Below are positions 2,931-63,673 of a stretch of 64,000 bases of DNA, one piece after another. Both the position numbers and the translations under genes were made by a program. Source of the stretch: Pisolithus tinctorius. Taxonomy: Eukaryota; Basidiomycota; Agaricomycetes; Boletales; Pisolithaceae. Location: positions 620,001 to 684,000 of the forward strand of contig JANFAH010000030.1 in NCBI GenBank assembly GCA_024663395.1, given 5' to 3'. The notes under the pieces are model-generated. The model searched no databases and was not told where the DNA came from. It saw only the letters and a program-made list of their open reading frames with translations. How positions within the stretch are numbered: the first letter of the stretch is position 1; every line of letters starts with the position of its first letter.

Positions 2931-2933
2931 GTA

Positions 2934-4502: not shown

Positions 4503-4504
4503 TA

Positions 4505-23524: not shown

Positions 23525-23526
23525 TA

Positions 23527-25126: not shown

Positions 25127-25128
25127 TA

Positions 25129-30486: not shown

Positions 30487-30487
30487 T

Positions 30488-31630: not shown

Positions 31631-31639
31631 CCTTTTTGC

Positions 31640-34980: not shown

Positions 34981-35994
34981 TCAGTGTATGGGGGGCATTG
35001 CGATGCAGATGAATTCTGTGGCTGTCTCTGTGGGCATCACTTGGATGTATGGAGTGAGTATCTGGTTGTGCTTCCAGAGGTAAAGCTGGAAGGCATCGCT
35101 TGCCCACCTCCCTTTGACTTTCATCACCTCAAAGGGGACTCCTTGTAGTAGGTATTCAAGGGTTGCTCCTATCCTGAGTCTGTGGCCATGTATGTGCTCG
35201 TATCCTGCTGCTTTGGCCAGTTTCTTTAGGCATGAAATGAAAGCTTGTCATGTCAGGGGGCAGTAGCACCTGTCCTTTTTGTAGGTGAATAGGGGGCTGT
35301 TGGTGGGTGGGTTATTGATCCTCAAGTGCTGGAGGTATGCAGCATGTGGGTCTGATGGTCCTGCCTGCTTCACCCAGTTCACTTCTTCACCATTGGGGTT
35401 CGACTTTGTGCTCAGTAAGGCAAATACTGTAGTTTTTAGCCCATTGCAATCCATCTCCTCTCGAACTCTTGCAGGGGTGATGTGCAGTGTGGGATCAAAA
35501 GCATTGAGGGGCTTGAGCGTGAACTCTCTGACTCTGGCCACTGCATAGAAGGTGGTGGTTAAGCATGCAAATAGGGCTACATCCATGGGATCATCTTTCA
35601 GCAGGAAATTGTGGATGTTGCAGATCATCTGCACTGTGATTGGCTTGTGCAGGTTTTGCTTGGAGGAGGCAGGTGCAATCTTGGAGGCCCCTTTGAGCAT
35701 GGTCACTATCTGGTCTTCATGAAGTATCCACAGTAGTCTGTTGAGGGTGTGCCATGCATGCACACTGTAAACATAGCCTTGTATGGTCTTTCCCAAGTAT
35801 GACCTGGCCAGGGAGGAGATGAAAGTTGATATTAAATTTGTGTCTGCAGGTGCATGCTCCTCTTCCACAATGTTTCTGCTGTTGCAGAAAACATGGTATA
35901 TGAGCAGACCTGCTCCATAAGATGCCCTGGTGCTGTCATTCCAACCGCTGAGCATGACCTCCCATACTCTGTCCCTGAAGTCTGGTGGCATGTT
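34981..35994 (-). pseudogene. DIRS tyrosine recombinase, one premature stop
   Basis: The recombinase integrates the circular DNA copy. The frame 'MPPDFRDRVWEVMLSGWNDSTRASYGAGLLIYHVF' starts the core-binding domain (SAM-like). The catalytic domain shows 'YAVARVREF' (first Arg), 'HGHRLRIGATLEYLL' (His-x-Leu-Arg box) and 'GRWASDAFQLYLWKH' (nucleophilic Tyr). All catalytic residues are present. The only lesion I see is a TGA at about 35243 (CPLT-stop-QAFISCL), where CGA for arginine is likely. It ends at a TGA at 34983-34981. Without the foldback insertion the frame runs upstream, in phase, into the RT fragment. Confidence 0.85.
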
Positions 35995-36008
35995 TAGGGA
36001 TTGTACTA

Positions 36009-37595: not shown

Positions 37596-37597
37596 TA

Positions 37598-38111
37598 TAG
37601 GGATAGTTCTGTAGGCTTTGGCTACATCTTGGGTTGCTCCTTGGCATCCTGGGGGGAGCGATGAGATTAGGGTGCATGTTGTAAGGAAAGTTCCCCAGGT
37701 GCATGGGAACAGTGATGAGTCAACCTGTGAGTTGATTGAGATAGCAGCGCTGTGTCTAGCTACAGTGGGGTACCATAAATTCTGTATTAGGCAGTACTTC
37801 CCCAGCTTTCTGGGTTTCAGTATGATACTCATGGGAGAAGACTGGAAAGGGCCTATGTACTGTTTGAGGAGCTGGGGGGGAAAGGGTCCTAGGTAGTGTC
37901 CCTTGGCAAATTCCTTATTGACTATCTCTTGGAAGGCAGGTTGGTATTGGTCTACAGACAGGTTGTTGGGTGGGGTGAATGTGTAGGGTATGTTTGGTAT
38001 GTGGATGTGGAAGCCATGGATTAATTGATGTACTAGGGATGGGTATTTCGAAGAGAGGTTGTAGTGGGTTAATAGAGTTTTCCATGCCTGAGGGTGGTAA
38101 GGGGTGCACAT
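37598..38111 (-). pseudogene. DIRS reverse transcriptase, N-terminal half only
   Basis: The frame reads 'HQLIHGFHIHIPNIPYTFTPPNNLSVDQYQPAFQEIVNKEFAKGHYLGPFPPQLL', 'YIGPFQSSPMSIILKPRKLGKYCLIQNL' and 'LISSLPPGCQGATQDVAKAYRTIPI', the fingers and first palm part of DIRS-type RT including the first catalytic Asp (DVAKAY). The rest of RT (YxDD box) and RNase H are absent. Across the foldback site the frame would read 'AYRTIPI' then 'VQSLNMPPDFRD', that is, directly into the recombinase in phase. So an internal deletion existed at or before foldback insertion. Confidence 0.8.
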
Positions 38112-38123
38112 GTTTCTGTGTTG

Positions 38124-39717: not shown

Positions 39718-39722
39718 GGGTG

Positions 39723-40009
39723 TGTTGGAGTTTATCCCTTTTTAACCTTAGTTGTGATTCACTGAGCACAGCATTATGTAATCCAAAAGCGGACACTTAG
39801 CAGTTTATTTTTCCTTACTGCACCTCAGCTTCAACCAACTTGAAGTCTGAGGTGGGACTCCTTCCATTCATTATATTGGAACACTTACTTACCTACCTAC
39901 AGTATATTCCTCTCTATAGGTAGTTAATTGTTCAGCTTCAACCAACTTGAAGTCTGAGTATATTCCTCTCTATAGACTTGACAATCCTGCAGCTCGTCAT
40001 CCTCCAAAA
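39723..40009 (+). repeat. 5' LTR of copia element
   Basis: 287 bp, starting TGTTGGAG and ending CATCCTCCAAAA, so the right end is not the usual CA; the boundary is fixed by equal LTR length and the GGGTG duplication. It contains an internal direct repeat (CAGCTTCAACCAACTTGAAG, twice) and two copies of GTATATTCCTCTCTATAG. Confidence 0.9.
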
Positions 40010-40023
40010 GGTTATGAGCCCCG
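40010..40023 (+). promoter_or_regulatory. Copia primer-binding site, initiator tRNA half
   Basis: GGTTATGAGCCCCG starts right after the LTR. It is complementary to the anticodon stem-loop of initiator methionine tRNA (...GGGCTCATAACC...), not to a tRNA 3' end. Priming from a cleaved initiator tRNA half is known from Drosophila copia and some fungal copia elements. Confidence 0.75.
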
Positions 40024-40082
40024 CTTGCAAGTTCTAATCCTAGGAAAATTGAACACGTCAAGTCTGGTACAAAGTGTCTACT

Positions 40083-43000
40083 ATGTCTGGTCCATCAGCA
40101 TCCACTTCCGGTCCCTCAAAGGTTCCAGTCTCCGCCTCAACAGTAACCTCTACTACACCTTCAGGTAAAGCTACTCAAGCCTCCAGTCGACTCTATGACA
40201 TACTGTCCCTCGAAGACAATGGTTCGAACTTCCAGACATGGAAGTACCGAATTATGATGATCCTAGATGTCTGTGGACTCTGGGAGCTCGTAGAAGGAAA
40301 GTTGAAGGCACCTGATGCAGCAGCTGATCCAGTTGCATGCGCAGACTGGCACTACAAGGATAAAGAAGCAAGGGCTCAAATCACGCTTACTCTAAAAGAC
40401 GACCCACTTAGTGGTGTTCTGCATGCCACGACGGCAGCAGAAGTCTGGAAAAAACTATGCGAGCGCTATGAAGGCAAAGGGAAACAAACGATAGCCTACC
40501 TTATCGGCGAACTATTTCGTGGTACCCTAGCAGATGATGTCTCGATGGAGACGCAGCTTAATGCCATGTGGCAGAAGGCAACAATCCTAAAGTCTCTTGG
40601 ACAGCCCCTCAAAGACTCTCTTGTTGCCATAGCCATGGTCATCTCCCTTCCAACCTCGTACTCAACCCTTCGCACTATACTCATGTCGTTCGATGAGAAA
40701 CTAACTCCGGACTCTGTCATTTCCCAAGTCTTGATAGAAGAGAAGTCTCGCCGCACCTCTTCGGCACAAACTGCCCTCGTAACAAAGACGCCTAACAAAA
40801 AGGGAAAGAGGAATGACAAGAAAAAGAAAAAGGCTTGTGGCTATTGCAAGAAGACGAACCATGTCGAAGATGACTGCTACAAGAAGAAGGCTGATGAGGC
40901 AGCCAAGTCCCTGTCACAGGCTGAAAAGGATAAGCCTAAGGAGGACAAACTTGTTGCTAAAGTCGCACGCATCTCACCTGCTGAAGACAGCGCTCTACGT
41001 CTCTTCATGGCCACTGACAATGGCGAGAATTTACACACGCACTGGGTCATTGACTCCGGTGCCTCTGTTAATATGTGCTGTCAGCGGAAATGGTTCACTT
41101 CGCTGAAGATGCTCTCACCCCCGCAGCCTGTAATCGTTGGAAATGGAAGCACAATTCCTGCTACTGCCATCGGACAGATCGAACTTCGTATGGATCTCCC
41201 AAATGGGAAGACCAGTAGAATCCTACTACAGAAGGTCTATTTCGTTCCAGACCTCAGCGCAAACCTCCTCTCAGTGGCATACCTTGCCACTAGAAATGTC
41301 CAGGTCACCTTCATGGGTGGAACATGCTCAATCACCGACGGTACAGACACTGTAGGAGTGGGTCATCGCCAAGGCTCACTCTACATCCTTGCAGCAAGGA
41401 CTCACTCTCCGAGTCATGGAGCACTTGTCGTACAAGGACCATCTCCACTACTTGACCCCTCTCTTACCTTCCCGGCACTCGCAGCTGCAGCACCAAAGTC
41501 TGTAGCCACACTTGACTTGTGGCATCGATGACTTGGGCATGCAAATATAAAATCTGTGCTTAAACTGGTTAAAGTGGGAATGGTTGAAGGCATGGAGCTT
41601 ACCGGCACTGAGGACTCGAAGTCAGTATGCCAACCTTGCCTCGAAGGGAAGCAACACCGTAAGGTGATACCCGTCAAGTCAAACGTTGAAAGCCCAACAA
41701 TACTCTACCGGACATACTCTGATGTATGTGGCCCCATGGAGACTACAGCCCGAACTGGACACCGCTACTTCGTAACCTTCATTGACGCTCACTCACACCA
41801 CCTTGTGGTTAAACTAATAAAATCCAAGGACGAAGTCTTCCCCTCAGTGAAAGACTACCTCGCTCGAGCTGAAGTCGAGACTGGCGAAAAAGCAAATTAT
41901 TTTCGGAGTGACGGAGGTGGGGAGTATGGCTCAGATGAGTTCAAGGCCTACCTCAAGTCAAAAGGGGTCCACCATGAGAAGATGAATGCCTATACCCCAC
42001 AGGAGAATGGCGTTGCCGAGCGGATGAACCGCACACTTGTTGAAAGTGTGCGGGCAATGCTAAAAGACGCTGGACTGCCAAATAAATATTGGGGGGATGC
42101 TATCCAGTATGCGGCCTACCTAATCAACCGATCACCAACCCATGCTATCTCCGAGGATGTCACGCCATATGAAGCCTTTACAGGGATTAAGCCATCGCTG
42201 GCCCATATCCGAACCTTTGGCTGCACCGCACACGTACATATACCCAAGGAAAAAAGAAAGAAGCTAGATGCAAAGTCCTTAGAATGCATTCATCTGGGCT
42301 TTGCGGAGAACAAGAAAGCGTACCTATGCTTACACCAGCCCACTGGTCGTGTCTTCGAATCCCGGGATGTAGTGTTTGATGAGGGAAGCACAGCGGTGGG
42401 CCTAGATCGTGTCCGGATAGAAGAAGATCCTGCAACCGTGGTTAGTAAACCAGCGGACATAAGAGGGAATGCCCAAAAGGGCAATACATCACACCTGGAT
42501 ACCATCAGGGCTTCAGGCATGGAAGACCGTGCTCACATGGAGTCTGATGATGGGGATCTCAAGTCTAGTGAGGGAGAGAGTGAAGACGTCGTCCATGAGG
42601 TCGAAATCGAGTCAAACGATGCACCTGATCACTCAGGATCAATGGTAGATCATTCCCCACAGCACTTGGAGGGTAATATGCCAGGAAGCGGCCAGAGTTC
42701 TAAAAAAGCGCTTGAAACGGCCTCAAAACCATCAGTAAAGCGAGCTAGGACGACACCGAAACCTACCGTGCATAAAGCGACACCCCCGCAGCCCTATCCA
42801 ACTCCAATTCCGCCTCGAGAGACCCACAGGTCCACCAGAACACGAAAAGTGCCACCTAGAGACGATGATTATCGCTTTTTTGTCAATTCCTATGACAGGA
42901 CAACCTTACCTAGTCAACAGCTTGAGGCGCTGGAGGGTTCAGGTGCAGAGAGTGAGGGTGGAAGCCCCATTGACGAAGTCGCTCGAGAGCGAGAGCGTGC

Positions 43001-44615
43001 GTGTGGCAACAGCGAGGCTGAGGTGGCTGGGACGAATGAGAAAGTGGCTTACAAAGCATACACAACACATGACAACGAACCTCGCTCGTTCAACGACGCA
43101 ATGCGACACACCAATGCAGATCAGTGGTATGCTGCGATGATTGACGAATTACAGACCTTTAAGTCCATCAGACTGTACGAGGAAGTTGCCCTGCCTCCTG
43201 GCCGTAAACTGATTGACTCGAAATGGGTCTACAAGATCAAGCGAGGGCCAACTGGTGAAATTGAGAGGTACAAGGCTCGTTTGGTAGCCAAAGGCTTTAC
43301 ACAGGTACACGGGATCGACTACACCGAGACGTTTGCACCTGTCACCAAGTTCGCAACCATCCGCATACTCCTGGCACTTGCCGCTAAGTATAATCTCAAA
43401 ATTCATCAGATGGATGTTAAATCTGCATTCCTAAATGGACTATTAGATGAAGAAATATACCTTCGCCCCCCTCCGGGCTTTCCTCCTGACAGGAACAAAG
43501 TCTGGCGGCTGCTACGAGCGCTCTATGGCCTTAAACAGGCCCCCAAGTCATGGTACTCTCGTCTTCGGACTGTTTTCGAATCCCTGGGATTCACTCGAAG
43601 CCAGGCTGACCATAGCCTCTTCTTCAAAGTCGAGAACGGCATACTAATTGTTGTTGCTGTCTACGTAGATGACAAGCTAATACTCTCAAAGTGCCGCACG
43701 ACTATTGAGCGTGTCAAGGCTCAGCTCTCACAGGAGTACGAGATGAAAGATCTGGGGGAGGCACATTGGATTTCGGGAATGGAGATACTTCGCGACCGTG
43801 ATAAAGGTATCATACAGCTCTCACAGAAGAGATATGTCGAGAATATTCTCGAATGCTTTGGAATGAGCGAGGGGCGAGCTGTCGCAACCCCCATTGAGCC
43901 TAACCTAAAGCTTAAAAAACTAGAAATTCCAGAGGCCGACACCAAGTCATACCAGGGTGCTCTTGGAGCCCTTATGTATGCAATGCTAGCAACGAGGCCT
44001 GACCTTGCCTTTACTGTAGGCATGTTGAGCCGTCATGCTGCATGCCCTGGGCATGAACACACTACTGCACTAAAGCGCATTTTTCGCTATCTGCAACGCA
44101 CCCCCGATGTCCGTCTTACCTATAAGCGAGACTCAAATGCACACGCAATCAGGTATGTAGATGCAGATTGGGCAGCAGATATCAACGACCGCCGCTCTGT
44201 TACTGGCTATACTTTCATCCTTTCTGGTGGAGCTGTTAGCTGGTCATCGAAAAAGCAATCATCTGTTGCTCTCTCAAGTACAGAAGCCAAGTACATGGCT
44301 GCATGCGCTGCCACAAAGGAAGCTATCTGGATTCGTACCCTAGTCCTCGAACTCAAGACTGTGTCGTCGCATGAACCCACTCCCCTCCTCATTGACAATC
44401 AATCTGCTATCTCACTGGCTCGAAATGCGATGTTCCATGACCACACGAAACATATTGCGATCCATCATCACTTCATATGAGAGAAGGTGGATTCTGGAGA
44501 AGTAGTCGTCAACTATGTGTCTACCAATGACCAGGTGGCCGACATGCTGACTAAGGGTGTGTCTAGGGAGAAGCATGTTCGTTTCTCTGAAGCTATGGGT
44601 ATTATTTTCTTCTAA
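40083..44615 (+). pseudogene. Copia Gag-Pol polyprotein, two premature stops
   Basis: Start ATG 40083 (MSGPSASTSGPS). Order: UBN2-type Gag ('NFQTWKYRIMMILDVCGLWELV'), CCHC knuckle CGYCKKTNHVEDDC, protease WVIDSGAS, GAG-pre-integrase ('LWHR-stop-LGHAN', 'CQPCLEGKQHR'), integrase ('YSDVCGPM', 'FRSDGGGEY', 'TPQENGVAERMNRTL'), a variable linker, RT ('KWVYKIKRGPTGEIERYKARLVAKGFTQ', 'MDVKSAFLNG', 'VAVYVDDKLIL') and RNase H ('VDADWAAD', 'SSTEAKYMA', 'NDQVADMLTK'). All active-site motifs are intact. The frame is interrupted by TGA at about 41530 (expected Arg in HRRLGH) and at about 44478 (expected Arg in FIREKV), both one transition from CGA. The stop TAA is at 44613-44615. Confidence 0.93.
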
Positions 44616-44634
44616 TTCCTTCTTGACTATACTC

Positions 44635-44646
44635 ATTGAAGGGGCG
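44635..44646 (+). promoter_or_regulatory. Copia polypurine tract
   Basis: ATTGAAGGGGCG directly abuts the 3' LTR, the expected position for plus-strand priming. Confidence 0.6.
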
Positions 44647-44933
44647 TGTTGGAGTTTATCCCTTTTTTACCTTAGTTGTGGTTCACTGAGCACAGCATTA
44701 TGTAATCCAAAAGCGGACACTTAGCAGTTTATTTTTCCTTACTGCACCTCAGCTTCAACCAACTTGAAGTCTGAGGTGGGACTCCTTCCATTCATTATAT
44801 TGGAACACTTACTTACCTACCTACAGTATATTCCTCTCTATAGGTAGTTAATTGTTCAGCTTCAACCAACTTGAAGTCTGAGTATATTCCTCTCTATAGA
44901 CTTGACAATCCTGCAGCTCGTCATCCTCCAAAA
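44647..44933 (+). repeat. 3' LTR of copia element
   Basis: 287 bp. I count two differences from the 5' LTR, both near the start (CTTTTTAACC against CTTTTTTACC, and TTGTGATTC against TTGTGGTTC). Confidence 0.92.
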
Positions 44934-44979
44934 GGGTGAAGTCAGGCCGGTTCTGTATCTGGGGTTGGTTATCTTCCAT
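44934..44979 (-). pseudogene. DIRS gag 5' end beyond the copia insertion
   Basis: On the minus strand an ATG at 44979 opens MEDNQPQIQNRPDFT, which joins in phase, across the copia element and one copy of the GGGTG duplication, to 'LPALQGVVKL' at 39717. The start and the precise insertion point are therefore both explained. Confidence 0.8.
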
Positions 44980-53222: not shown

Positions 53223-54267
53223 TGTGGGACACTACCTCTGGGTAGTGTGCGGATAGGGGAAGGCTGTAGGGGAAATCCCTAGGCTCGACCCAAGGGGTGC
53301 TGAGTAGGAAGGAGACATAGAGTACGATGATAGAGTCAGTTGAAGAGTCAAATGTAGGGCACAGAATTTGATTCCACAGAGTTGTAGGTAGGAATAGACT
53401 TCGCTTCTGAAATTCCAAGGGACGATCTTGACCCGACGAAGTAACTCCGAGACGAATTAGGCACATGAGAGGGGAAACGAGGGACTAGCAGACCAAGGAC
53501 ACAAAGACACGGGAGACACAGTGGACACAGATGATGCAAAGACACAGGTATGCAGCAAACACAGAGGACACAAGGACACTTAGAACACCTTAGACTCACA
53601 TGTGACACGGATGGTGAGTCCTGAAAGATGATTCTTTTTGTCTCTAAGGCAGACTTATATAGTACATGGATAGTAAGGTACTGATCAGAGAAATGTGGGG
53701 CAGGTAAAGCAAAATTCCAAAAAACAAAGAGGGCGATGTGTCAGATGTCAAAGCCATACAGGATCATGTGAAGACAAACTGTTAAGTAGTAACCAAGAAA
53801 AACAAATGGGAAAAGATGGGTATATTTTGGCAGGACAAGTGTACATCGTACTGTGGAGTGCACGAAGGATAGAGGCCATAGATGCAAGGGGGTACTCGCA
53901 TTGCAGAGAAAGGTTTGCAGGAGAAGAGCGAGAGAGGTAACTGGAGTTTTTACTGATGATCTGCATGATTTCCCAGCTATGTGGCGAGGCGGAGGTTGAG
54001 GCGACACAACTGTGGAATTCCGGATAGATGTGTGTCAGGTTGATGTTGAAACGGAATTCCGGGATGATGACTGGTGTGTGTTATTGATGGACAGGGGAGC
54101 TCCAAAGGATCATCGGGCAAGGCAGTGCACGAGGCTGATGCATGAGGCTGATGCAATAATTCCGAAGACGACAGATGTGGAACTTTGATAGGGGTCAACT
54201 TTGGTAACAGTGGAATTTTGGTGTTGGCATCCCTATTTTGGCCTCAGGGAGTATACTACTCCCTACA
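53223..54267 (-). repeat. 3' LTR of element B
   Basis: 1045 bp. On the minus strand it starts TGTAGGGAGTATACTACTCC, a perfect short inverted repeat, and ends GTGTCCCACA. It differs from the other LTR mainly by C/T and G/A changes at CpG sites. Confidence 0.93.
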
Positions 54268-54529
54268 CCTCCCATGGTCTTCGAATGCTGACCGTCCTTG
54301 GTCAGAGGTCATCGAGTCACGACAGAAGGGCAGCAGAGATTCGGCAGGTGACATAAACAAAGATGGTTCATGTTCAGCCACATGCCTTGTGTGAGCAAAA
54401 CTCCGCACATGGGTAATGCATCAGCAACAGCCCTGCGGAATTAAAAAAACTCGCCTGGAAACCGTCTCATCATCAGATTCACCCTTGTTACTCTACCACC
54501 TTGCTCTCAGACTCTCACAACTCTCGCCA

Positions 54530-56110
54530 ATGACCATGCAAGCCTACTCCATCAACGACGCGCATCCCATGTTCAGCATGAGGGACCAGGCGACCACAGC
54601 GCTCGCTGCAGCTCTAGGGCATGTCTGGAACTTGATCAAGGCGGCACCACAGCCAGAGGAGAGGCTGGAGACCATCTATGCATGGGTGGAGGACTGGGAT
54701 AAGACATGGGTGAGCAACCTTCCACTGTAGTGCATCGTGCATTGACAGAGATCCACAGGCCAGCATATGCTCATGGTGGAAATATGTCGATGACAACGGA
54801 ATTTCTGTGCCAAAGGTTCGCGACGAGTGCATGTGCAACTACACCGAGGAATCTGCGATGTGCCAAAGCCTTCTAGTCCCAGGTGCTATCGCCATCGCTG
54901 ACCTCCATCGTCCAGTGGAGCAGAGACGGATCCAAATCGACGACATCTTCGAAGACTACCAGGAGAGCATAGAGTTGAGAGCGCAGCTCGAGGCAGAGAG
55001 GTTGGCAAGAGAGCCTCCTATGCGCACGGGCAGACAGGCAGCAACGACGATAGGTGAAGGTCAAGGCTGCGCGCCCAGCGACACTGAAGCAGGGGAGTCT
55101 TTGAGGGGGACTGGATGACCAGTGTGGGAACAGATGGATAGTACAGGCAAGGGGAAGGGCAAGGAAAAGGTATGTCCTACCCTCCAGGAAACTCCGAGCG
55201 CGATGGTTAATGTTCAGAAAAACTCCGCAGGCCACAGACGAAGTTGACGAGCTGGAGAATGATGAAGGCAAACACCCACCTAACCCTGACCCATCGAAAA
55301 CTGGTGCTCCAGCACCTGACCCCAACCTTCAATGCAGGGAGTGCACAAAGGTAAATGCAGCGTGCGAAGGGCTACCTGGGGAGTCGTGCGAGCGATGCAG
55401 GCAGGCCAAACGGAAGTGTAGCTGGTCGCTCAGAGTGGGTAGGAAGGTGAGTACGAGCTGATCGTGACGTGAAGAATGAGGACACTGAACTGTAACACAG
55501 TGCAAGAATGCTGGTAGTGGAGAGATGGCTGCTGGGCCGTTGCATAAACGGACCAAGTCAGTAATGGTAATGGCGATGACTGGGCTGAAACTCTGGATCC
55601 CTGCTCACAAACCCCTCCCCAGGCAAAACTCCAAACTGACTCCTGGGCACCCAACACCTCGTGCTAGTTCCCCATCGACCTCAAACATGCCTCCTCCTCC
55701 TGCACCTCGACCTCCCCTCTTCCTTCCATCAGCAACCCCTGCACCTTGACCTCACCCTGAGCTAACTCCGCCACCAATGGACAATCTGGGAGACCTCGGC
55801 GATGGTGGACTTTTTGGCAGACCGACAGGATTATTGGACGATCCACCCGCACCAGTCGACAGCGTGCAGGATGAAGAAACTCCACCAGTCGCAAACCCGA
55901 GCGAATCGACTATGTGCGAGGCTCTTGCTGAGCGCATCTGACTGTTGGAGGGTAGGGCAGACAACGAGGAGTTTGAGTTGACCCAGATTCACCAGACACT
56001 GGGGCTGTTGGCAACGCGAGTAGAGCAACAGATTGGTGCAGTTCAGGGGCAACATGAGGAGCTGAAGAGGTTGAAGGATCAGCCAAGGATATGTAGGTAC
56101 GAGTACAGTA
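54530..56110 (+). pseudogene. Antisense Zn2Cys6-like coiled-coil gene inside Ty3 element B
   Basis: Start ATG 54530 (MTMQAYSINDAHPMF; also ATG 54536). Plus-strand exons with good splice sites: introns about 54708-54749 (GTGAGC...TGACAG), 55170-55229 (GTATGT...CCGCAG), 55447-55500 (GTGAGT...AACACAG). The protein reads 'TALAAALGHVWNLIKAAPQPEERLETIYAWVEDWD', 'QRRIQIDDIFEDYQESIELRAQLEAERLARE' (coiled coil), then a six-cysteine cluster CRECTKVNAAC-x7-CERCRQAKRKC spaced like Zn2Cys6. A Pro-rich linker and a C-terminal coiled coil ('LLATRVEQQIGAVQGQHEELKRL') follow. Two TGA codons (about 55118 and 55939) stand at likely arginines. It lies between pol and the 3' LTR, in opposite orientation to the element. 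It may act as a DNA-binding regulator; this is inference. Confidence 0.7.
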
Positions 56111-56237
56111 GTGTAAGTAGGATGCAGAATTTATTTTGTTTTATTTTGTGAGTCTTTTGGTATTTTTGAATGGGAATATCGCTAAGAAGGGAGCAGGGAA
56201 AGAGAACAAATCGATGAGAGATGGAAGATGAGCGGAA

Positions 56238-56259
56238 TTTTTTTTTTTTTTTTTTTTTT
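56238..56259. repeat. T22 run
   Basis: A homopolymer of about 22 T between the antisense gene and the end of pol, with GA-rich sequence following (56280-56360). Confidence 0.9.
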
Positions 56260-56358
56260 GTGTGGGGTTTTGTTTTATATGAGACGAAGAGGGTATATAT
56301 ATAAGCGAAAGGAAAAGCGGAGAAAGAGAGGAAAGAAAGAGATAGAGAGAAAGGTGTG

Positions 56359-57545
56359 CTACTCATCTGATTCATCCAAAGGGATGCCAGCAAGTGTGGG
56401 GTCTGGTAGTGAATCGTCTTCCAAGTGATCTAAGTTGCCTGCGGAAATTCCAGTCAACTGTGTGACTTTGATACGAGAGTTATTCTGTGGGAAATAGGGG
56501 TAAAGATGGAAGGCGGTGAAATGGAATTTGGACATGGCACCATCTAATTCCACCAGGATGTACGAGCCTCCTTTGGTTCGCTGAACGATGATCATGGGGC
56601 CTAGGTAGTGTGGTTTGGTCTTGCGATCTAGTTCTCGCTTGATACGTGAATTCCGCATGAGGATGAGTGACCCAGGTTCGAAGTCGAAGTCTTGGATGGT
56701 GTGCACAAAACGAGCGACAAAGTCTTTGAGTGAAGCGAAGCAAGACTTCAGAACAAGATCATGGATGTGAGCGAGGTCTTCTGAATGTTTCTGGAGTTGT
56801 CGAGCACGATGGGCAATGAGTTCTGTCGTCGAGTAAAATTCTGCTTTGAAAGGGGCTAAGAATGTCACCTCAGCAAGGTCAAAGGGGAGTCTAGGTTCGA
56901 TGCTGTGAGCCATATAGAATGGAGAAAACCCAGTTGCCTTGTGAATCGTAACCCTCTCTGCCCAGAACACTGTAGGAGCCACCTCTGACCACTTTGATGC
57001 TTCCCTGCCACAACTCTTTACCAACACCTCCCTCACATCGAAATGCCGACGCTCAACAACTCCATTCACTTGTGAGTTATAAGGTGAGATTCATATGTGG
57101 CAAATTCTGAAGGTCTTGGAGAGCCAATCAAGGGCGAGTACATAGGGACCACCATTATCTGTGACAATTTCTGCAACAGCACCCCAATGGCACAAGATCT
57201 GCTCGAAGATGAATTTTCCAATGGTCTTGCCAGTTTCTGTGCAAAGCATAGCCCACTCTGGATAACTAGTGAGTGAACAGCAAGCTTGGGTGACGTAGCG
57301 AAATCCATTCGACTTCGGCATTAAGAATTTGTCCATATATGCTTTAAAGAATAGGGGCTCGGGGATGGCGACGACTGGTGGAATATGTACACGATCCAAA
57401 TGGCATATTTGGCACTTGTGACACGACTTGACATACCAGCAGACGTCCTGCTCTAGCATAGGCCACCAGAAATGAGTCAGCAACTGCATGCAGGTCGAGT
57501 AGATACCCTTGTGTCCTAGCTCATCATGAGCCTGACGAAGAATCC
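56359..57545 (-). pseudogene. Element B integrase
   Basis: Minus strand: HHCC region 'RLRILRQAHDELGHKGIYSTCMQLLTHFWWPML' (preceded by a TGA at about 57540) and 'CHKCQICH'; core 'HIPPVVAIPEPLFFKAYMDKFLMPKSNGFRYVTQACCSLTSYPEWAML', 'ILCHWGAVAEIVTDNGGPYVLALDWL' (second Asp), then after a TGA at about 57092 'ISPYNSQVNGVVERRHFDVREVL' (Glu). The C-terminal part is 'PFYMAHSIEPRLPFDLAEVTFLAPFKAEF', 'DFDFEPGSLILMRNSRIKRELDRKTKPHYLGPMIIVQRTKGGSYILVEL' and an acidic tail ending at 56359. Catalytic residues are kept; only the two stops break it. Confidence 0.88.
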
Positions 57546-57549
57546 TGAG

Positions 57550-58128
57550 TCATTTGTGAGGGGCGACTACTAGTTGGTGACATCCTTGAGGGTCTTTTCT
57601 CCACAGGTCTCCCCCTTTGACGAAATACCAAGTGGCGAGATGCACCAGGCTTGCCAACTCCACTTCCTCCAATCCTTCTGGCTTCTTCTTCGTCTCCAAA
57701 AACTCCTTCACCACTTTCAACCTCTCCTCTCTCTGGATCGCTTTCTCTGAGCATGGAATTTCCATCTCGTAGACACTTGGCGAGGTTTGTTCGGAGGAAT
57801 AGATGCCTAGACTCTGTGACAAGACTGAAGGTGAGTCTGACAAGGTACTCGGAATTTCCGAAGGGTAAGGCTGAGACTCGAAATGGGCCTCCCTACAGTT
57901 TGAAAGCTCGACAGTGAAGGCTCCACACTCGTCTATCCACTCCTCGTAGTCCTCTTCTCCATCCTCATCTTCTTCTGCTTTTGGTCTCCTTGAAAGACCA
58001 TCTGGCACTGCATGCTTGTGAGCAGGGACATGTACAAGCTCAAAGTCAAATAAAAGAATTCCCGCAATCCAGCAGTTGATGGTTGCGTTGGGCTGTAAGT
58101 CTGGATTGTTAATCATCCCCTTTATATA
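57550..58128 (-). pseudogene. Element B RNase H C-terminus and linker
   Basis: After a TGA at about 58129 ('VEVDA-stop-YIKGMINNPDLQPNATIN') the frame continues 'WIAGILLFDFELVHVPAHKHAVPDGLSRRP', the end of RNase H. An acidic linker follows ('EEDEDGEEDYEEWIDECGAFTVEL') with a variable Ser-rich part, then 'LASLVHLATWYFVKGGDLWRKDPQGCHQLVV', which leads into the integrase zinc region. Confidence 0.85.
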
Positions 58129-59382
58129 TCATGCATCAACCTCAACAACTAAATTCTGCACACCGAAAATGGGAAGTCTGACATCATGTAAAGTGCGGAA
58201 GAGACCAAAGAGCACGAGTTTGGCTTGGCTGTAACAGCATTCGTGGTTGTTGAGAGTTATCGAGCCGAACCTCGCAGGGTAACATTTTCCATCTTCCCCC
58301 TCCTGCATGAGGAGGTATCCTACAGCGATATTCGAAGTGTCGACTGCCAGAATGACCTTCCTCTCGGAATTGTAGTCGATAGTGCGTAGCGCAGGGGATG
58401 AGACAATAGCTTGGTCCATGGCTTCCCTGTGTTCATCGCGGAATTCAAAGGAGACGTCTTTCTTGGTCAGCTTGACGAGGGGACATGTGGGCTTAGCGAA
58501 ATCCTTGATAAAGATCCTACAATACAAGCAAAGACCTAAAAATCCGCGCACTTCGGTGACATTAGTGCAGTAGGGCCAGTCTTTAATTTTCTGGACTTTA
58601 GCTTTGTCCAGAATTCTCCCCTCGAATGACACCTTATGCCCAAGCACAATGATAGACGGCACGGCGATGACGCATTTCTTTGCTGAAATGGTAGCTCCTG
58701 CGTGACACAGATGATGCAAGATGTGGTTGACATTCTGCAGATGTTCACAGATGAAGCACCGGATCCTGGAGTTTTGTGCGATCGTCTGGTAGGTACCGTC
58801 GGAATTTTGGTAACGAGATTTGGGGCCCTTGATCGGGCAGTCATCGATGAATGGGATGGTAACTTCCAGAATTTCATCCTTCAATATCCAACAGATGTCT
58901 CTGTGGAAAATCTGGACGGCATTCATGTAGCCCATAGGTAGTTTAGTGAGTCGAAGGGTACTGATAGGGGTTTGGAAAGTAGTAAGATCGCAGTATTCAT
59001 CATGTATGGTGCGATGATCGTATCTGACCATAAGATCTAAAATTCCATAGACGGAGTGGCAGGCAAAAGCTTCTGCAATCGAGTCGACGAAGGGGGGAAC
59101 AGCTGAATCCTGTAAGTCATGGACAAGGCACAGAGATTTTCCGTCCTTCCTGACTATGCAGAACCATTTTGAGCAATAGGATGAAGTAGATGGTTTGTAG
59201 ACTCCTGCAGACATTTTTTCTTTGATTATGCTGACGACATCACGAAAAATGGCGGGAGGTATGGGGATATTCTGCTTGACCCAGGGTTTGTGGGCTAGTG
59301 TGGGTATCTTCAGCAGCGGAAACATATCTTCTTGGAAGGTTCCCCTTTCTGTGGCATCCCAAGCAAAGGCGGTCTCATGCAT
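58129..59382 (-). pseudogene. Element B reverse transcriptase and RNase H
   Basis: A 417-residue open frame: 'TERGTFQEDMFPLLKIPTLAHKPWV', 'NIPIPPAIFRDVVSIIKEKMSAGVYKPSTSSYCSKWFCIVRKDGKSLCLVHDLQ', 'VYGILDLMVRYDH' (first palm Asp), 'MSTLRLTKLPMGYMN'-like segment, 'VTIPFIDDCPIKGP' (catalytic FIDD in place of YxDD), 'RGFLGLCLYCRIFIKDFAKPTCPLVKLTKKD', 'ILAVDTSNIAVGYLL' (RNase H). Upstream, TGA codons at about 59396 and 59411 interrupt the frame where Arg is likely. All RT boxes are present, so this copy decayed recently. Confidence 0.9.
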
Positions 59383-59399
59383 CTTGACCAGCCATCATA

Positions 59400-60557
59400 C
59401 CAGATTTAACTCCGCAGGTCAGAGGAACTTCAAAGGGTCCAGGTCGAGCTCATCAGCCCTTTCCTGGGTGAACCTGGAGCCTGGCATGAATGGAGGAGGA
59501 TGAGTAGGTAATACAGGCAAGTCTGTGAGAGGATTTTCAGCCTCCCAATGCTCTACCCAGAATTCCACAGGCATCGATGTCAGTACAGGCCTGACCTTCT
59601 TCGCTACAGGTTTGTACTTTAAAATATGAAGAATGGGATCGAACTGGTAAGTGGAACGTAAAGCTGAAACTGTCAGTGGTGAAATGGTAGTGCTAGTAGA
59701 AAATAAGAAGGGGTCATTTGAAGAAATGGAACTAGAATCGAACAGATCAATGGGGGGCATACTGTTGCTTTGTAAATCGTAGAGCAATGCCGCAGCGGAA
59801 TTTTCGGTAGTGTCTGTAGAGGAAAGGGAAGCCAGCTTCAAAGGTAACAAAGGAGGATCAGAGAGGTAGAGAGAACACACAGAGAAAACATTATCATGGC
59901 CTCCTCATGATCCAAACAAGTCATCGACCGACACTAAAAACCCTGCTCAGGTTGTTTCATGTGGCGACGCATCTCCTTGCATGCAAAGTAGTCTTCTTTG
60001 TCTTCGCGATTTACGAACCATGGAAGAGGCTGTAGTCTGTTTCGAGGGCATGTCTGAATTAATACCTGTCTACCCATGTTAGGGTCACAAATCTCCAGAG
60101 ACTGTTCTCCATCAGGACAATCTTGTAGGATGCTGGAGAGCAGGCAGAAGAAAGGTCGCCCGAGCAGTAGATCAAATGGTGCACAGTCGACAACCTGAAT
60201 CTGGAGGTGCGCTTCGATATTCCCTATGCGCAAGGACGTGTTCTCTATGACCCCATGGGTGCTTTCTTTGGATTGGTTAGCAGCCTCCAGAGTCATGGTC
60301 ATGTCAGTATGGAGGGGGGCCTCTAAAGCTTCCCACAACTCTCATCGCAAGGCCACTACCTGGCATCCACTGTCCAGAATACATTCGACATGAAGTTTGT
60401 CCATCAAGATTCTGTCAACAGCACATAAGGGAGCCATAGCGAGGCCTATGCACTTCCCTTCTGTGTCTCTGACCCAGAATTGCTCATAGGATGCCCATGC
60501 AGGTGATGCCACAGCTTCTGACACCGTTTCCAAGCTCCCAATCATTATCTTCTTCAT
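59400..60557 (-). pseudogene. Element B protease region
   Basis: The minus strand reads 'ASYEQFWVRDTEGKCIGLAMAPLCAVDRILMDKLHVECILDSGCQVVALR', with DSG as the retropepsin active site. After a TGA (expected Arg) it continues 'ELWEALEAPLHTDMTMTLEAANQSKESTHGVIENTSLRIGNIEAHLQIQVVDCAPFDLLLGRPFF'. After another break come 'LHILKYKPVAKKVRPVLTSMPVEFWVEHW' and 'RFTQERADELDLDPLKFL'. It cleaves the element's polyprotein. The ILDSG...LLGRPFF spacing is typical of pepsin-like retroviral proteases. Confidence 0.85.
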
Positions 60558-60656
60558 TGTGGCCAGTTCTCAGACCTGCTTGCAAATCTCTGGACTGACA
60601 GCAAAGAGGTCTTTGGTAGAAATTTCCATCTTCACCTCTAAGACTTGGTTTATGAG

Positions 60657-62605
60657 TCATCTAGTAGCAGCCACTTCATCGAAGCTGCTCTGGTATCGAA
60701 ATTGGGGTGCAGGAATCATTGTAGGCTTAGCTTTCCTGGGATCTGTGGGATTAGAGATGACCGGAGTTTTACTAATGGCTGTGTTTTCTGTAACATGGAC
60801 GGGATCCTTTGGAACGGAATTATCAACTGGCCTGGGGGCAGTTGACACGTTAGCAGGCGCTGGACCTGTTGCGGGGGTTCGCTGATGGCAAGCTGGAATA
60901 TCTACACCATCGAAACGAGTGACCTTCTTCTTCTTGATATTATTTTTCAATTCTTCTACCTGTGCATAGGCTCTTGCCAGTGCGCACTGGTCCTCTTCAT
61001 CAGTATTACTCTCTAGTTCTTTGTCGATTAGGTAGGAGGAGGGATGTAAGTCGACCTGAAATTCCACGGTCTCTTCATTACTGAAGAACATTGTGCTGAT
61101 GAGATGAGGTGGGGTATCGCATCCTCGAGACAAGTTTGATGGCTGGTTAGGATGTTGTACGGAGACGAGGTTTGCTGAGGCGATGATAGAATCACACATG
61201 GAAAGGAAGTTGTCGATCTTTTCTTTAAAGTTCTGCCCAGCAGCCATCCTAGGAATGTCAGAACCATCAGGCATAAATACCCTTCCCCCTATCAGGGTGC
61301 ATTTCCCAGCTTGTACATATTCACGACACAGTGTGCACTCTGCCATGCAGTGACCATCGGTGCTTCCACAGAAGAAACACTGTGGGTCAAAAGAGCGATG
61401 GAATTGGCCCTCTTGACCTTGCTGAGGAGGTGACGTGTTGGTAGGTTGTTGGGCGACTTGGACATACTCATATTTTAAGATAGTGGGGACCGTCGACGAA
61501 GAAGGGGGTGTGGAGTTCTGAGGAAACAAGGCTGAAGAATCAGGTTGAGGGAGATTTCATTTTGCTCCACTGAGCAGGTAGTTAGCATGCTTGTAGACCA
61601 GATCCAACTCCCAAGGTTCGTCAATGTCGTGATCTAGGTCTGAAAGTTGCAATCACGTGAGCAAGGAATTCCGGAACCTCGGGGGAAATCCCTCAAGGAA
61701 TTTCTCGTTGATGTAGTCCTCAGGGAGCTTCTTCTTCTTCTGGACGAGGCCAAGGATGTGTCGGAATTCCCGGATGTATTTACTGAGATCTTCCAGCGAT
61801 CCCATAGGTTTCTGAACTTGATGGTAGAGTAAGGTCTCAAGGTTGGCTTTGGTATAGTGACAATCTTTCACTGAGGCACCTGGATAGTAGTTCAGGAGTT
61901 CTTTGGAAAACACGTCCCAGTCATTGAAGCTGTTGGTTGCAGTGTCTAGGGTAGACCAAAATTCTGCCTTGTTGTGATCGGTGTAACGGATGACCCAGTG
62001 GATTTTATCTTTTCCAGTGTCAAGGCCAGCTTCGACACAGAGTTGTTCAACATCTTTGAGGTAGCAAGTGATGTCTTCAGTGCGACTGGAAAACTTCGGG
62101 GCTTTGTTGGAGCCCCTGAGTGGCATGTCTCTAGCTCCAGACATTATGCAAACGGATGCAGAATTTAAGAGTGGGGCGACTGAGGTATTCTGAGTGGGAA
62201 CTTGGGCAGGGGAAACGATAGTGGGATTTAAACTGAGCGATTGCGAAGGGATAAGGAGTTGTTCAGCAGCGAGTTCTGAATCACTGGATGGCAAGGATGA
62301 CGAAGAGGTTAGTTCTGAGAGAGGCGAAAGTTCTTGACGTTCAGTGGGAGGATCGAAGGGTTCGTCAAAGTTGAAGCCTCCTGGAAATGCTGGGTAAAAT
62401 GCTGGGGACTCTGGGCTCCAAAAGATCTCGTCTAAACCGAGATCTGAGTCTGACGAGTGTGGCTCTGAAATATCTCTAGGATCAGCTACCAGGATTAAGA
62501 TTTCTGATGAGGAAATAGACAGTCTGCAGAAGGGCTCTAGGAGCTCTTCGAGTTCGGTTCTTTGATGAGTGGGTTGTAAGGATCTCCTTTCCAGATCTAC
62601 AGACC
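60657..62605 (-). pseudogene. Element B gag
   Basis: The frame is open from near the primer site (about 62600) to 61653 without an obvious ATG. It has an acidic start ('SDSDLGLDEIFWSPESPAFYPAFPGGFNFD'), then the capsid 'APKFSSRTEDITCYLKDVEQLC', 'KIHWVIRYTDHNKAEFWSTLDTA', 'SLEDLSKYIREFRHILGLVQ' and 'YINEKFLEGFPPRFRNSLLT'. The second part (61529-60657) has a cysteine/histidine cluster, CFFCGSTDGHCMAECTLCREY, a non-classical knuckle, then 'VFMPDGSDIPR' and 'KKKKVTRFDGVDIP'. The break at 61530-61650 contains stops. Confidence 0.82.
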
Positions 62606-62608
62606 CCT

Positions 62609-62622
62609 CGCGGTGGGCTCCA
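62609..62622 (-). promoter_or_regulatory. Primer-binding site of element B
   Basis: On the minus strand TGGAGCCCACCGCG lies six bases inside the 5' LTR. It begins with TGG and resembles the site in element C (TGGAGCCAACCAC). Confidence 0.65.
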
Positions 62623-62628
62623 AAACAA

Positions 62629-63673
62629 TGTGGGACACTACCTCTGGGTAGCGTGTGGATAGGGGAAGGCTGTAGGGGAAATCCCTAGGCTCAACCCAAG
62701 GGGTGCGAGTAGGAAGGAGATGTAGAGTACGATGATAGAGTCAGTTGAAGAGTTGAATGTAGGGCACGGAATTTAATTCCACAGAGTTGTAGGTAGGAAT
62801 AGACTTCGCTTCTGAAATTCTGAGGGATGATCTTGACCCAACGAAGTAACTCCAAGATGAATTAGGTGCACAAGAGGGGAAACGAGGGACTAGCAGACCA
62901 AGGACACAAAGACATGGGAGACACAGTGGACACAGATGACACAAAGACACAGGTACACAGCAAACACAGAGGATGCAAGGACACTTAGAACACCTTAGAC
63001 TTGCATGTGACACGGATGGTGAGTCCCAAAAGATGTTTCTTTTTCGTCTCTAAGGCAGACTTATATAGTACATGGATAGTAAGGTACTGATCGGAGAAAT
63101 GTGGGGCAGGTAAAGCAAAATTCCAAAAAACAAAGAGGGCGACGTGTCAGATGTCAAAGCCATACAGGATCATGTGAAGACAAACTGTTAAGTAGTAACC
63201 AAGAAAAACAAATGGGAAAAGATGGGTATATTTTGGCAGGACAAGTGTACATCGTACTGTGGAGTGCGTGAAGGATAGAGGCCGTAGATGCAAGGGGGTA
63301 CTCGCATTGCAGAGAAAGGTTTGCAGGAGAAGAGCAAGAGAGGCAACCAGAGTTTTTACTGATGATCTGCGTGATTTCCCAGCTATGTGGTGAGGCAGAG
63401 GTTGAGGTGACACGACTGCGGAATTCTGGATAGATGTGTGTCAGGTTGATGTTGACATGGAATTCTGGGACAATGACTGGTGTGTGTTATTGATGGACAG
63501 GGGAGCTCCGAAGGATCAACAGGCGAGGTGGTGCATGAGGCTGATGCACGAGGCTGATGCAATAATTCTGAAGACGACAGACGTGGAACTTTGATAGGGG
63601 TTGACTTTGGTAACAGCAGAATTTTGGTGTTGGCATCCCTATTTCGGCCTCAGGGAGTATACTACTCCCTACA
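62629..63673 (-). repeat. 5' LTR of element B
   Basis: 1045 bp, matching 53223-54267. Compare GTGTGCGG with GCGTGTGG, CTCGACC with CTCAACC, and GACCCGACG with GACCCAACG: most differences are transitions at CpG. Confidence 0.93.

What the first reader, a model, noticed from the sequence alone, without database searches (positions are those of the whole stretch)
54530..56110. A spliced Zn2Cys6-like gene in antisense inside a Ty3 retrotransposon
Seen: between pol (ends 56359, minus strand) and the 3' LTR (53223-54267) of element B lies a plus-strand gene with at least three GT...AG introns, a six-cysteine cluster spaced C2C6C7C2C6C and two coiled-coil segments. Introns that splice only on the plus strand imply the gene is expressed opposite to the element's genome, which would otherwise lose them. 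Known: Zn2Cys6 domains are the typical fungal DNA-binding domain; antisense ORFs near the 3' end are known in some plant Ty3 lineages. Inference: the protein may bind element DNA or regulate its transcription, or it may be a captured host gene.
Basis: partly seen in the sequence, partly recalled or inferred. Interest (0 to 1): 0.78.

Follow-up and report, generated by a model that had tools for sequence, protein, structure and literature searches.

The report
Backward zinc-cluster gene in fungal retrotransposons
Jumping elements of the mushroom Pisolithus carry, on the strand opposite to their own genome, a spliced gene for a probable DNA-binding protein, and one lineage of them is peppered with a short DNA word of the kind such proteins bind, which suggests that the elements steer their own activity.

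Summary
Element B (53223-63672) is a Ty3-type retrotransposon of Pisolithus tinctorius; between pol and its 3' LTR lies a plus-strand gene with three introns and a C2C6C7C2C6C cluster. All 39 other gene copies fetched sit in element sequence, and 80 of 93 integrase ends of the B group have the gene next door, none on the same strand. A younger Ty3 family (D; integrase ends 52-56% identical) has a homologous antisense gene with three introns and the same cluster, open in 7 of 9 copies, Ka/Ks 0.13-0.30 in 32 of 36 pairs. A third family in this window (A, 26434-27618) has the same cluster spacing. The window's own copy is decayed (three stops, one frameshift).

New: B elements, but not A, D or the rest of the window as far as compared, are peppered with CGGAATT words (37 GGAATT against 6.4 expected, no strand bias, beyond synonymous-codon expectation); CGG is the classical zinc-cluster half-site.

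Most likely an element-encoded, self-targeting transcription or anti-silencing factor, comparable to HTLV-1 HBZ and plant VANC proteins. Expression and binding are untested. The kind (antisense accessory ORF) is known; this is a new variant.

The parts
53223..54266 (-). 3' LTR of element B (the element reads on the minus strand)
   Evidence: 93.4% repeat of the stretch at 62629-63672; eight GGAATT/AATTCC sites in it
54287..54305 (.). Palindrome GCTGACCGTCCTTGGTCAG beside the polypurine stretch and 3' LTR, upstream of the antisense gene
   Evidence: In 38 of 38 upstream regions that could be cut out (of 42), varying only at CpG-type positions; also in family D; 33 genome matches, some sites counted twice, against 0 for the reversed control, in the form followed by CATG
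54536..54709 (+). Antisense gene, exon 1 (ATG at 54536)
   Evidence: Alignment of the window and 31 copies
54710..54758 (+). Intron 1, GT..AG
   Evidence: GT/AG in 32 of 32 rows, 49 or 50 nt
54759..55169 (+). Exon 2 (in-frame stop near 55116 in this copy)
55170..55230 (+). Intron 2, GT..AG
   Evidence: GT/AG in 32 of 32 rows, lengths 59-67
55231..55446 (+). Exon 3, holds the six-cysteine cluster (55333-55419)
   Evidence: Cysteines invariant in 10 aligned proteins; 4 of 30 non-duplicate rows have a 19-nt deletion inside it
55447..55500 (+). Intron 3, GT..AG
   Evidence: GT/AG in 31 of 32 rows (L036 has a deletion here)
55501..56096 (+). Exon 4: basic stretch, proline-rich region, C-terminal coiled coil (stops near 55747 and 55939 and a one-base loss near the end in this copy)
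56359..62684 (-). gag-pol region of element B, in pieces (RT/RNaseH at 58132-59394; integrase C-end at 56359-57090; the ORFs in the place of gag have no significant Pfam match)
   Evidence: RT_RNaseH_2 1.4e-11, RT_RNaseH 1.2e-8, RVT_1 3e-4; repeated as a unit with the antisense gene
62629..63672 (-). 5' LTR of element B
   Evidence: 67 differences in 1044 aligned positions, 64 of them transitions
53223..63672 (.). Dispersed CGGAATT-type motif: 37 GGAATT/AATTCC sites
   Evidence: 37 against 6.4 expected, the top-ranked 6-mer; 21:16 by strand; by segment
26434..27618 (+). Antisense ORF of a second Ty3 element in the window (family A) with the same C2C6C7C2C6C spacing

Best explanation
The gene is a conserved accessory gene of a Ty3 retrotransposon clade, read from the strand opposite to gag-pol out of a promoter just inside the 3' LTR. 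Its introns can be removed only from its own transcript, so the element's genomic RNA, which holds them backwards, keeps them at every round of reverse transcription. After splicing it encodes a protein of about 310-480 residues with a helical N-terminus, a Zn2Cys6-like cluster with a basic tail, and (clearly in B) a C-terminal coiled coil. I infer that it is a nuclear, dimeric, sequence-specific DNA binder, that in B elements it recognises TGCGGAATT-type sites strewn over the LTRs and the body, and that it thereby switches the element's transcription on, tunes it, or keeps off methylation. SHOWN: gene structure, fixed place and strand, presence in two families (B with two subfamilies, and D) and probably a third, purifying selection on the spliced protein, over-representation of the motif in B. 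INFERRED: transcription, zinc and DNA binding, the link from protein to motif, direction of the effect.
For: Gene and place: 39 of 39 fetched matches have element sequence beside them, LTR side in 37 and pol side in 34; 80 of the first 93 rows of the integrase-end search have it within 3 kb on the 3' side, opposite strand, and none on the same strand. Other families: subfamily B2 in the same place in 2 of 2 loci read; family D, one locus read by eye and then 8 of 8 stretches fetched by distance from the integrase hit held the gene, all 27 introns GT/AG, 7 of 9 frames open. Homology of B and D: profile match over the cluster, probability 88.5%, E 2.7e-6; three introns each, the first two in phase 0 in both, cluster wholly in exon 3. 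Selection: D Ka/Ks 0.13-0.30 in the 32 of 36 pairs with Ks above 0.25, while shifted frames give pN/pS 1.17 and 1.50; B at non-CpG sites 0-fold 0.033 against 4-fold 0.104, pol C-end 0.014 against 0.066. Motif: AATTCC is the top 6-mer in two B1 copies and in one of two B2 copies and second in the other (37/6.4, 24/2.8, 22/2.1, 23/1.9) but not raised in A (4/6.2), D (0/1.1, 0/2.8) or two other window stretches (19/14.8, 14/11.4); no strand bias, and 19 against 6.65 in synonymous shuffles, 0 of 1000; TGCGGAATTT 668 genome-wide against 37 for the reversed control, 3.19 per 10 kb inside assumed B spans against 0.053 outside among the 100 places listed.
Against: No RNA evidence at all. No binding evidence; the motif was found by looking, not predicted beforehand. 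Pfam Zn_clus is below its cut-off for the window protein, absent for six of the seven proteins (19.1 bits for the seventh) and for all four. The PDB sequence hits to a fission-yeast Zn2Cys6 regulator have E 3-5, not significant. AlphaFold models are poor (pLDDT 49 and 67) and Foldseek found nothing usable. 67 of 100 listed TGCGGAATTT places lie outside the B spans, among them four inverted pairs about 1.0-1.1 kb apart in what looks like another repeat. D carries the gene without GGAATT; its own top 6-mer CCGCGG is weaker (10 against 1.8). B copies are heavily CpG-decayed, so if the protein fights methylation it has often failed. 26 of 112 antisense pieces have no listed integrase beside them, and assembly duplicates inflate counts. 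The basic residues are not where Gal4-type proteins have them.
Confidence: 0.55

Rival explanations
1. Accessory protein with another job: the antisense gene is a real, selected element gene, but the protein acts on nucleic-acid packaging, nuclear entry or integration, and TGCGGAATT is a site for a host factor that the B elements exploit.
For: Gene and selection as above. The motif also lies in coding DNA and in another repeat, and D has the gene without the motif.
Against: CGG is the half-site of zinc-cluster proteins (recalled), and the motif has no strand bias, which argues against an RNA signal. It is shared by B1 and B2, whose clusters are alike, and missing in D, whose cluster differs.
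Confidence: 0.27
2. Antisense RNA is what matters: plus-strand transcription across the 3' end makes double-stranded RNA or interferes with the genomic RNA, and the protein is incidental.
For: Antisense transcription with such roles is discussed for plant and animal elements (PMC7264820, passages read). Head-to-head arrangement with the U3 of the 3' LTR.
Against: Selection acts on the amino-acid sequence of the spliced frame, splice sites are kept while intron sequence diverges (mean p-distance 0.38-0.47 in D), and the six cysteines are invariant in the aligned proteins. An RNA-only role needs none of this.
Confidence: 0.07
3. Captured host gene, carried as a passenger in one lineage.
For: Zinc-cluster proteins are abundant fungal regulators (recalled); retroelements do capture genes (PMC7264820, abstract passage). 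26 of 112 antisense pieces have no listed integrase beside them, so a free-standing copy is not excluded.
Against: Shared by families with integrase ends 52-56% alike, under long-term purifying selection inside the elements, introns kept, no free-standing homologue among 39 fetched places and no homologue outside Pisolithus among those listed. An ancient capture at the root of the clade remains possible.
Confidence: 0.06
4. Ordinary host gene that happens to lie between two element parts, or a chance ORF.
For: The window copy is not open, and relatives are listed as 'hypothetical protein' in Pisolithus proteomes.
Against: Repeated as a unit with LTR and pol; conserved frame, splice sites and cysteines.
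Confidence: 0.02

Closest known systems
brtn, the antisense gene of Boty-like Ty3 elements in Botrytis cinerea (Zhao et al. 2011, Virology 417:248; paper not read, known from its title and from passages in PMC7264820, PMC8365987, PMC4227169, PMC5987419)
   Same: Fungal Ty3 element with an extra antisense gene between pol and the 3' LTR.
   Different: Ascomycete chromodomain element (PMC4227169 passage). The passages that I saw give no introns, no zinc cluster, no selection test and no target motif; homology to our gene was not tested.
Antisense aORFs of plant elements (Grande gene23, RIRE2, Retand with the TRP28 domain; PMC7264820 passages and sections 5 and 7, PMC11963269 passages)
   Same: Same place and strand; conserved over a clade; TRP28 is predicted to bind DNA; Grande GENE23 is nuclear and has its own promoter.
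   Different: TRP28 is a different domain; the word 'intron' occurs 0 times in either main text; no dispersed cognate motif in what I read.
HBZ of HTLV-1 (nuclear antisense protein: PMC11963269 passage; spliced bZIP gene driven from the 3' LTR: recalled)
   Same: Spliced antisense gene beside the 3' LTR, nuclear, dimerising regulator of the element itself.
   Different: bZIP, not zinc cluster; an animal retrovirus; no common origin claimed.
VANC anti-silencing proteins of VANDAL DNA transposons (PMC5735166, passages read)
   Same: TE-encoded, sequence-specific protein whose 9-bp motif (YAGTATTAY) is dense in its own family and rare in other TEs.
   Different: DNA transposon in a plant; motif mainly in non-coding parts and in one orientation, whereas here both orientations and coding DNA as well. 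Binding and loss of methylation were shown there, not here.
Fungal Zn2Cys6 transcription factors (Gal4 type; Pfam PF00172)
   Same: C-x2-C-x6-C-x7-C-x2-C-x6-C spacing, basic residues in the cluster, coiled coil (in B) for dimerising.
   Different: Basic residues lie between the fifth and sixth cysteine, not the second and third; Pfam below cut-off and matching the second half only; cluster in mid-protein.

Membership tests
Antisense accessory ORF (aORF-3R) of LTR retrotransposons | ORF between pol and 3' LTR, antisense to gag-pol | tested here: met
Antisense accessory ORF (aORF-3R) of LTR retrotransposons | Present in most copies of a family, with conserved sequence | tested here: met
   80 of 93 B-group integrase ends; 9 of 9 D copies looked at; selection
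Antisense accessory ORF (aORF-3R) of LTR retrotransposons | Antisense transcript | not testable with these tools
   No RNA data available
Ty3/Metaviridae element | LTRs and RT-RNaseH-integrase order | tested here: met
   LTR pair; RT_RNaseH_2 and RT_RNaseH above cut-off in B; in D RT_RNaseH, then Integrase_H2C2 above cut-off, then rve just below cut-off. No tree was made
Zn2Cys6 (Gal4-type) DNA-binding proteins | Six cysteines spaced C2C6C(5-12)C2C(6-8)C (definition recalled) | tested here: met
   Invariant in 10 B proteins and 9 D rows; present in the A ORF of the window
Zn2Cys6 (Gal4-type) DNA-binding proteins | Basic residues between the second and third cysteine (recalled) | tested here: not met
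   They lie between cysteines five and six (RQAKRKC, ARMKQRC)
Zn2Cys6 (Gal4-type) DNA-binding proteins | Match to PF00172 above the curated cut-off | tested here: not met
   20.1 against 21 bits, second half only; P0020 19.1 bits, six others none; none in two D proteins
Zn2Cys6 (Gal4-type) DNA-binding proteins | Two-zinc fold | tested here: inconclusive
   AF2 puts helices at both CxxC pairs, block pLDDT 67-80 there; Foldseek and VIA-align gave nothing for this part
VANC-like self-targeting anti-silencing system | Short motif dense in the element's own family, not in others | tested here: met
   the motif is not exclusive to B (67 of 100 listed places outside the B spans)
VANC-like self-targeting anti-silencing system | Encoded protein binds the motif and removes methylation | not testable with these tools
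   Needs EMSA or DAP-seq, and bisulfite sequencing
HBZ-like retroviral antisense regulator | bZIP domain | tested here: not met
   No bZIP match in the Pfam scans; the comparison is functional only

The most novel reading that the evidence does not exclude
These Ty3 elements carry a self-targeting regulatory system of the VANC type in an LTR retrotransposon: a spliced antisense gene makes a zinc-cluster protein that binds TGCGGAATT words, which selection has multiplied through the LTRs and even through gag-pol by synonymous changes, so that one open copy can de-repress or control every copy of its own lineage; sister families keep the gene but have switched to other CGG-type words (CCGCGG in D).
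Probability: 0.3. Interest if true: 0.9.

Novelty: new variant of a known kind. Interest (0 to 1): 0.74.

Why it matters
Antisense genes near the 3' end of LTR retrotransposons have been noted for decades without a known function. Here is one with a recognisable nucleic-acid-binding cluster, three introns that show which strand is meant, strong selection over deep divergence, a family with mostly open copies, and a candidate target word already written into the element. That makes the old question 'what do antisense retrotransposon genes do' directly testable with one recombinant domain and one oligonucleotide. If right, it would be convergent with HTLV-1 HBZ and with plant VANC proteins. It also means that many 'hypothetical' or 'Zn(2)-C6' proteins in Pisolithus proteomes are probably retrotransposon genes and not host regulators.

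Tried and rejected
Intron 4: my first model had a fourth intron (55557-55622). In one group of copies its donor reads AT, its lengths are 66, 78 and 84 (83 and 79 in two frameshifted copies), and the stretch codes for residues conserved in P0022; dropped. The selection test was run on the five-exon model and so leaves that stretch out of the coding sites; it was not repeated. It also drops columns with more than three gaps and two duplicate rows.

Fold searches: the full-length model (pLDDT 49) and the cluster model (67) gave no usable match. Phmmer of the D cluster against PDB gave only hits at E 1 or more.

Relatives elsewhere: an IMG/VR scan with the RT confirmed none. No other fungal genomes are on hand, so the distribution outside Pisolithus rests on protein searches that scored only the candidates sharing most words. 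Those listed no other genus at E up to 0.01 and 1; distant relatives could be missed.

Target-site duplication: the flanks GTCGT and TTGTC do not match; not resolved. The tRNA of the primer-binding site was not identified.

CGG-N4-CCG and CCG-N4-CGG pairs as the B motif: not clearly raised in L021 or L054; TGCGGAATT took their place.

Literature: the listings of searches led me to fungal Boty brtn and to plant aORFs, and I saw nothing on an antisense zinc-cluster gene in a basidiomycete Ty3 element; most listed papers were not opened. The Laccaria TE paper has no 'antisense' or 'zinc' in its main text (PMC3411680). Only open-licence papers are held, so this is no proof of absence. The Lys14 site (GCGGAATT-like) is recalled and was not found in the paper that I checked (PMC4863609).
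Full report
What the window is. The window is G000:C30:620001-684000 of a 92.5 Mb assembly in 221 contigs. Proteins found in public records lie on contigs whose lengths equal G000 contigs (800628 = C31; 4449062 = C3; 636008 = C38 and others) and are named BKA82DRAFT, Pisolithus tinctorius, an ectomycorrhizal mushroom. I infer that this is that assembly.

The element. Element B has LTRs at 53223-54266 and 62629-63672 (67 differences in 1044 aligned positions, 64 of them transitions, 32 at a CpG of one LTR) and reads on the minus strand: ORFs in the place of gag (no significant Pfam match), RT/RNaseH (RT_RNaseH_2 1.4e-11), integrase end at 56359 (named by position and by its relatives; no Pfam match of its own). 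The 3' LTR begins after a purine-rich stretch; no target-site duplication was found.

The gene. In the window and 31 copies that align over the whole gene (8 of the 39 fetched were left out as truncated or interrupted) the start codon, three introns and the frame are shared. Exon lengths: 174 in 28 of 30 non-duplicate rows, 411 in 23, 216 in 26. Introns 1 and 2 vary by one or a few bases (49/50; 59-67) and intron 3 hardly at all (54 in 29 of 30), as expected if only exons must keep frame. One of the 32 rows is fully open. Of 89 in-frame stops, 81 are TGA at codons that other copies have as CGA, that is, CpG decay after insertion. The window copy has three stops and a one-base loss.

It belongs to the element. 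All 39 fetched matches have element sequence beside the gene: the LTR side in 37, the integrase side in 34 (counted from its table; these are the best matches to this very gene, so they are not a random sample). Going the other way, the first 93 rows of the integrase-end search have an antisense match within 3 kb on the 3' side and on the opposite strand in 80 cases, and a same-strand one in none. Of the other 13, five have an unclaimed one 3.9-8.5 kb away on the expected side, one has a match that already belongs to a nearer integrase, one has a match on the wrong side, and six have none within reach. The antisense list was 112 main pieces, not all rows; 26 of the 112 had no listed integrase beside them, and assembly duplicates are counted on both sides.

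Other families. (i) Subfamily B2 (proteins 50-56% identical to B1): the same arrangement in two of two loci read. (ii) Family D: integrase ends 52-56% identical to B, many with 1209-aa open frames. One locus was read by eye and showed the gene; then eight more stretches were fetched only by distance from the integrase hit, and all eight held it. Seven of nine frames are open (313-322 residues), the other two have one stop each, and 27 of 27 introns are GT/AG. B and D profiles match over 48 columns covering the cluster (probability 88.5%, E 2.7e-6). Both have three introns, the first two in phase 0, intron 3 in phase 0 in B and phase 1 in D, and the whole cluster in exon 3. Outside the cluster the two proteins were not aligned by the profile comparison. 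(iii) Family A, in this same window (RT 62% identical to B): a plus-strand ORF at 26434-27618 on the 3' side of the integrase end, with CDHCHIAQAICSGALGLKCVCCHQLHYTC, the same spacing. Profile match to D: probability 33%, E 4.5e-4; to B: 11.5%, 0.0026. So the homology of A is likely but not proven. At least 30 loci in the genome match it (75 pieces).

Selection. Family D, nine copies, 36 pairs: Ka/Ks 0.13-0.30 in the 32 pairs with Ks above 0.25; 0.28-0.55 in the four closest pairs. pN/pS is 0.32 in frame, 1.17 and 1.50 in the two shifted frames, and 1.12, 0.48 and 1.70 on the other strand (the 0.48 frame shares third positions). Family B needs care because CpG sites are saturated (variable in 94-100% of columns in every site class). 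At other sites, diversity is 0.033 at 0-fold and 0.104 at 4-fold positions (30 rows, two duplicates dropped, five-exon model), against 0.014 and 0.066 in the integrase end of the same family. So the spliced protein has been kept by selection, somewhat less strictly than pol (ratio 0.32 against 0.21). Since the frame exists only after plus-strand splicing, this also argues that the gene is expressed as an antisense mRNA at some time; no RNA data were available.

The protein. Helical N-terminus; acidic and low-complexity middle; the six-cysteine cluster followed by basic stretches (GRKRKN, SHKRVK in B); in B a proline-rich part and a C-terminal stretch with heptad pattern (2 of 5000 shuffles as good; D L064 142, D L058 1589, A 4615 of 5000). 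Pfam Zn_clus is just under cut-off for the window protein and matches the second half. Public records call six of the relatives 'Zn(2)-C6 fungal-type' (P0020, P0022, P0029, P0035, P0036, P0043). AF2 puts helices at both CxxC pairs with modest confidence; fold searches were uninformative.

A word in the element. While looking for CGG-type sites I saw that GGAATT recurs. AATTCC ranks first of all 6-mers in the window's B element (37 against 6.4 expected in dinucleotide shuffles), in L021 (24/2.8) and in L054 (22/2.1), and second in L053 after poly-A (23/1.9). It is not raised in A (4/6.2), D (0/1.1; 0/2.8) or two other stretches of this window (19/14.8; 14/11.4). In L021 and L054 the base before it is C in 37 of 46; before that G and T are the commonest, 21 of 46 each: (TG)CGGAATT. 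Both orientations are about equally common (21:16, 13:11, 10:12, 13:10), as for a DNA and not an RNA signal. In 4950 nt of gag-pol coding pieces there are 19 against 6.65 in synonymous-codon shuffles (0 of 1000 reach 19). It is densest in the LTRs (8 and 5 in about 1 kb each) and nearly absent from the antisense exons (1 in 1397 nt). 38 of 39 copies exceed three times expectation, though copies are not independent. Genome-wide, TGCGGAATTT occurs 668 times against 37 for the reversed word. Of the 100 places listed (contigs C1 and C2 only), 33 lie in nine assumed B spans, 0.8% of the sequence (3.19 against 0.053 per 10 kb; one span lies beyond the listed stretch, so 3.19 is low); 15 more are in other clusters; the rest are alone, in smaller groups, or in inverted pairs 1.0-1.1 kb apart in some other repeat. 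In D the top 6-mer is CCGCGG (10 against 1.8), again a CGG-type palindrome but far weaker. The comparison covers few D sequences (one 5.9-kb locus and eight gene fragments) and one decayed A copy.

A conserved palindrome, GCTGACCGTCC(T/C)(C/T)GGTCAG, sits between the 3' LTR and the antisense gene in 38 of 38 B regions that could be cut out (of 42) and in D, where a second, partly decayed copy lies between the gene and pol. It could be an RNA hairpin for plus-strand priming, a protein site (CCG-N4-CGG), or both.

How it most likely works. Transcription from a promoter just inside the 3' LTR, head to head with the LTR's own U3, yields a spliced mRNA; the protein enters the nucleus and binds the element's CGG-type words as a dimer. 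Density in the LTRs suggests control of transcription; spread through the body suggests marking the whole element, as VANC proteins do against methylation (PMC5735166, passages). CpG decay suggests that these elements are, or were, methylated. Activation or anti-silencing seems likelier than repression, because selection on the element favours it, but HBZ-like restraint cannot be excluded. The steps after 'selected protein' are inference.

What is known. Antisense ORFs between pol and the 3' LTR are known in plants and in the fungal Boty element, function unknown (PMC7264820, sections 5 and 7 and passages; PMC11963269 passages; Boty also in PMC8365987, PMC4227169 and PMC5987419 passages; the Boty paper itself was not read). 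So the kind is known; splicing, zinc cluster, breadth, selection and the target-like word are what is new here, to the extent of the searches named.

Noticed in passing
window 26434-27618 and 27893-32536: A second, CpG-decayed Ty3 element (family A) with its own antisense zinc-cluster-like ORF; at least 30 loci in the genome.
   Followed up: partly
L056 436-478 and 2561-2607: Family D has the purine-rich tract plus palindrome twice: next to the 3' LTR and again next to the end of pol, so that they flank the antisense gene. This could be a central polypurine tract or the scar of how the gene got in.
   Followed up: partly
window about 55343-55361 in L013, L028, L032, L044: A 19-nt deletion inside the cysteine cluster occurs in four B copies of different subgroups, as if a broken allele spreads by recombination or recurs.
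   Followed up: no
C1:5740614/5741711, C2:1557713/1558796, C2:2190085/2191049, C2:4318672/4319766 (G000): TGCGGAATTT in inverted pairs about 1.0-1.1 kb apart: perhaps another repeat that carries the same word at both ends.
   Followed up: no
window 39718-44935: Nearly intact Copia element: 294-bp terminal repeats 99% identical, gag (Retrotran_gag_2) and pol (RVT_2) open except for one stop between them.
   Followed up: partly
window 2924-4513 and 23525-25131: Two 92% identical copies of a roughly 1.6-kb unit, each made of two 700-bp inverted arms 98% alike.
   Followed up: no
window 35248-38123: Inverted repeat of about 705 bp, 99.6% identical (36007-36712 and 36892-37597), beside ORFs that look to me like a tyrosine recombinase and a DIRS-type RT (no Pfam match).
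   Followed up: no
P0001-P0093: Antisense element genes are listed as hypothetical or Zn(2)-C6 proteins in P. tinctorius and P. orientalis proteomes; in some that I read (such as P0001, P0066) the predicted introns skip decayed stretches.
   Followed up: partly
C143/C16, C148/C29, C163/C73, C151/C30, C33/C124 (G000): Pairs of places with equal scores on small and large contigs: probably unmerged haplotypes or assembly duplicates, which inflate copy counts.
   Followed up: no
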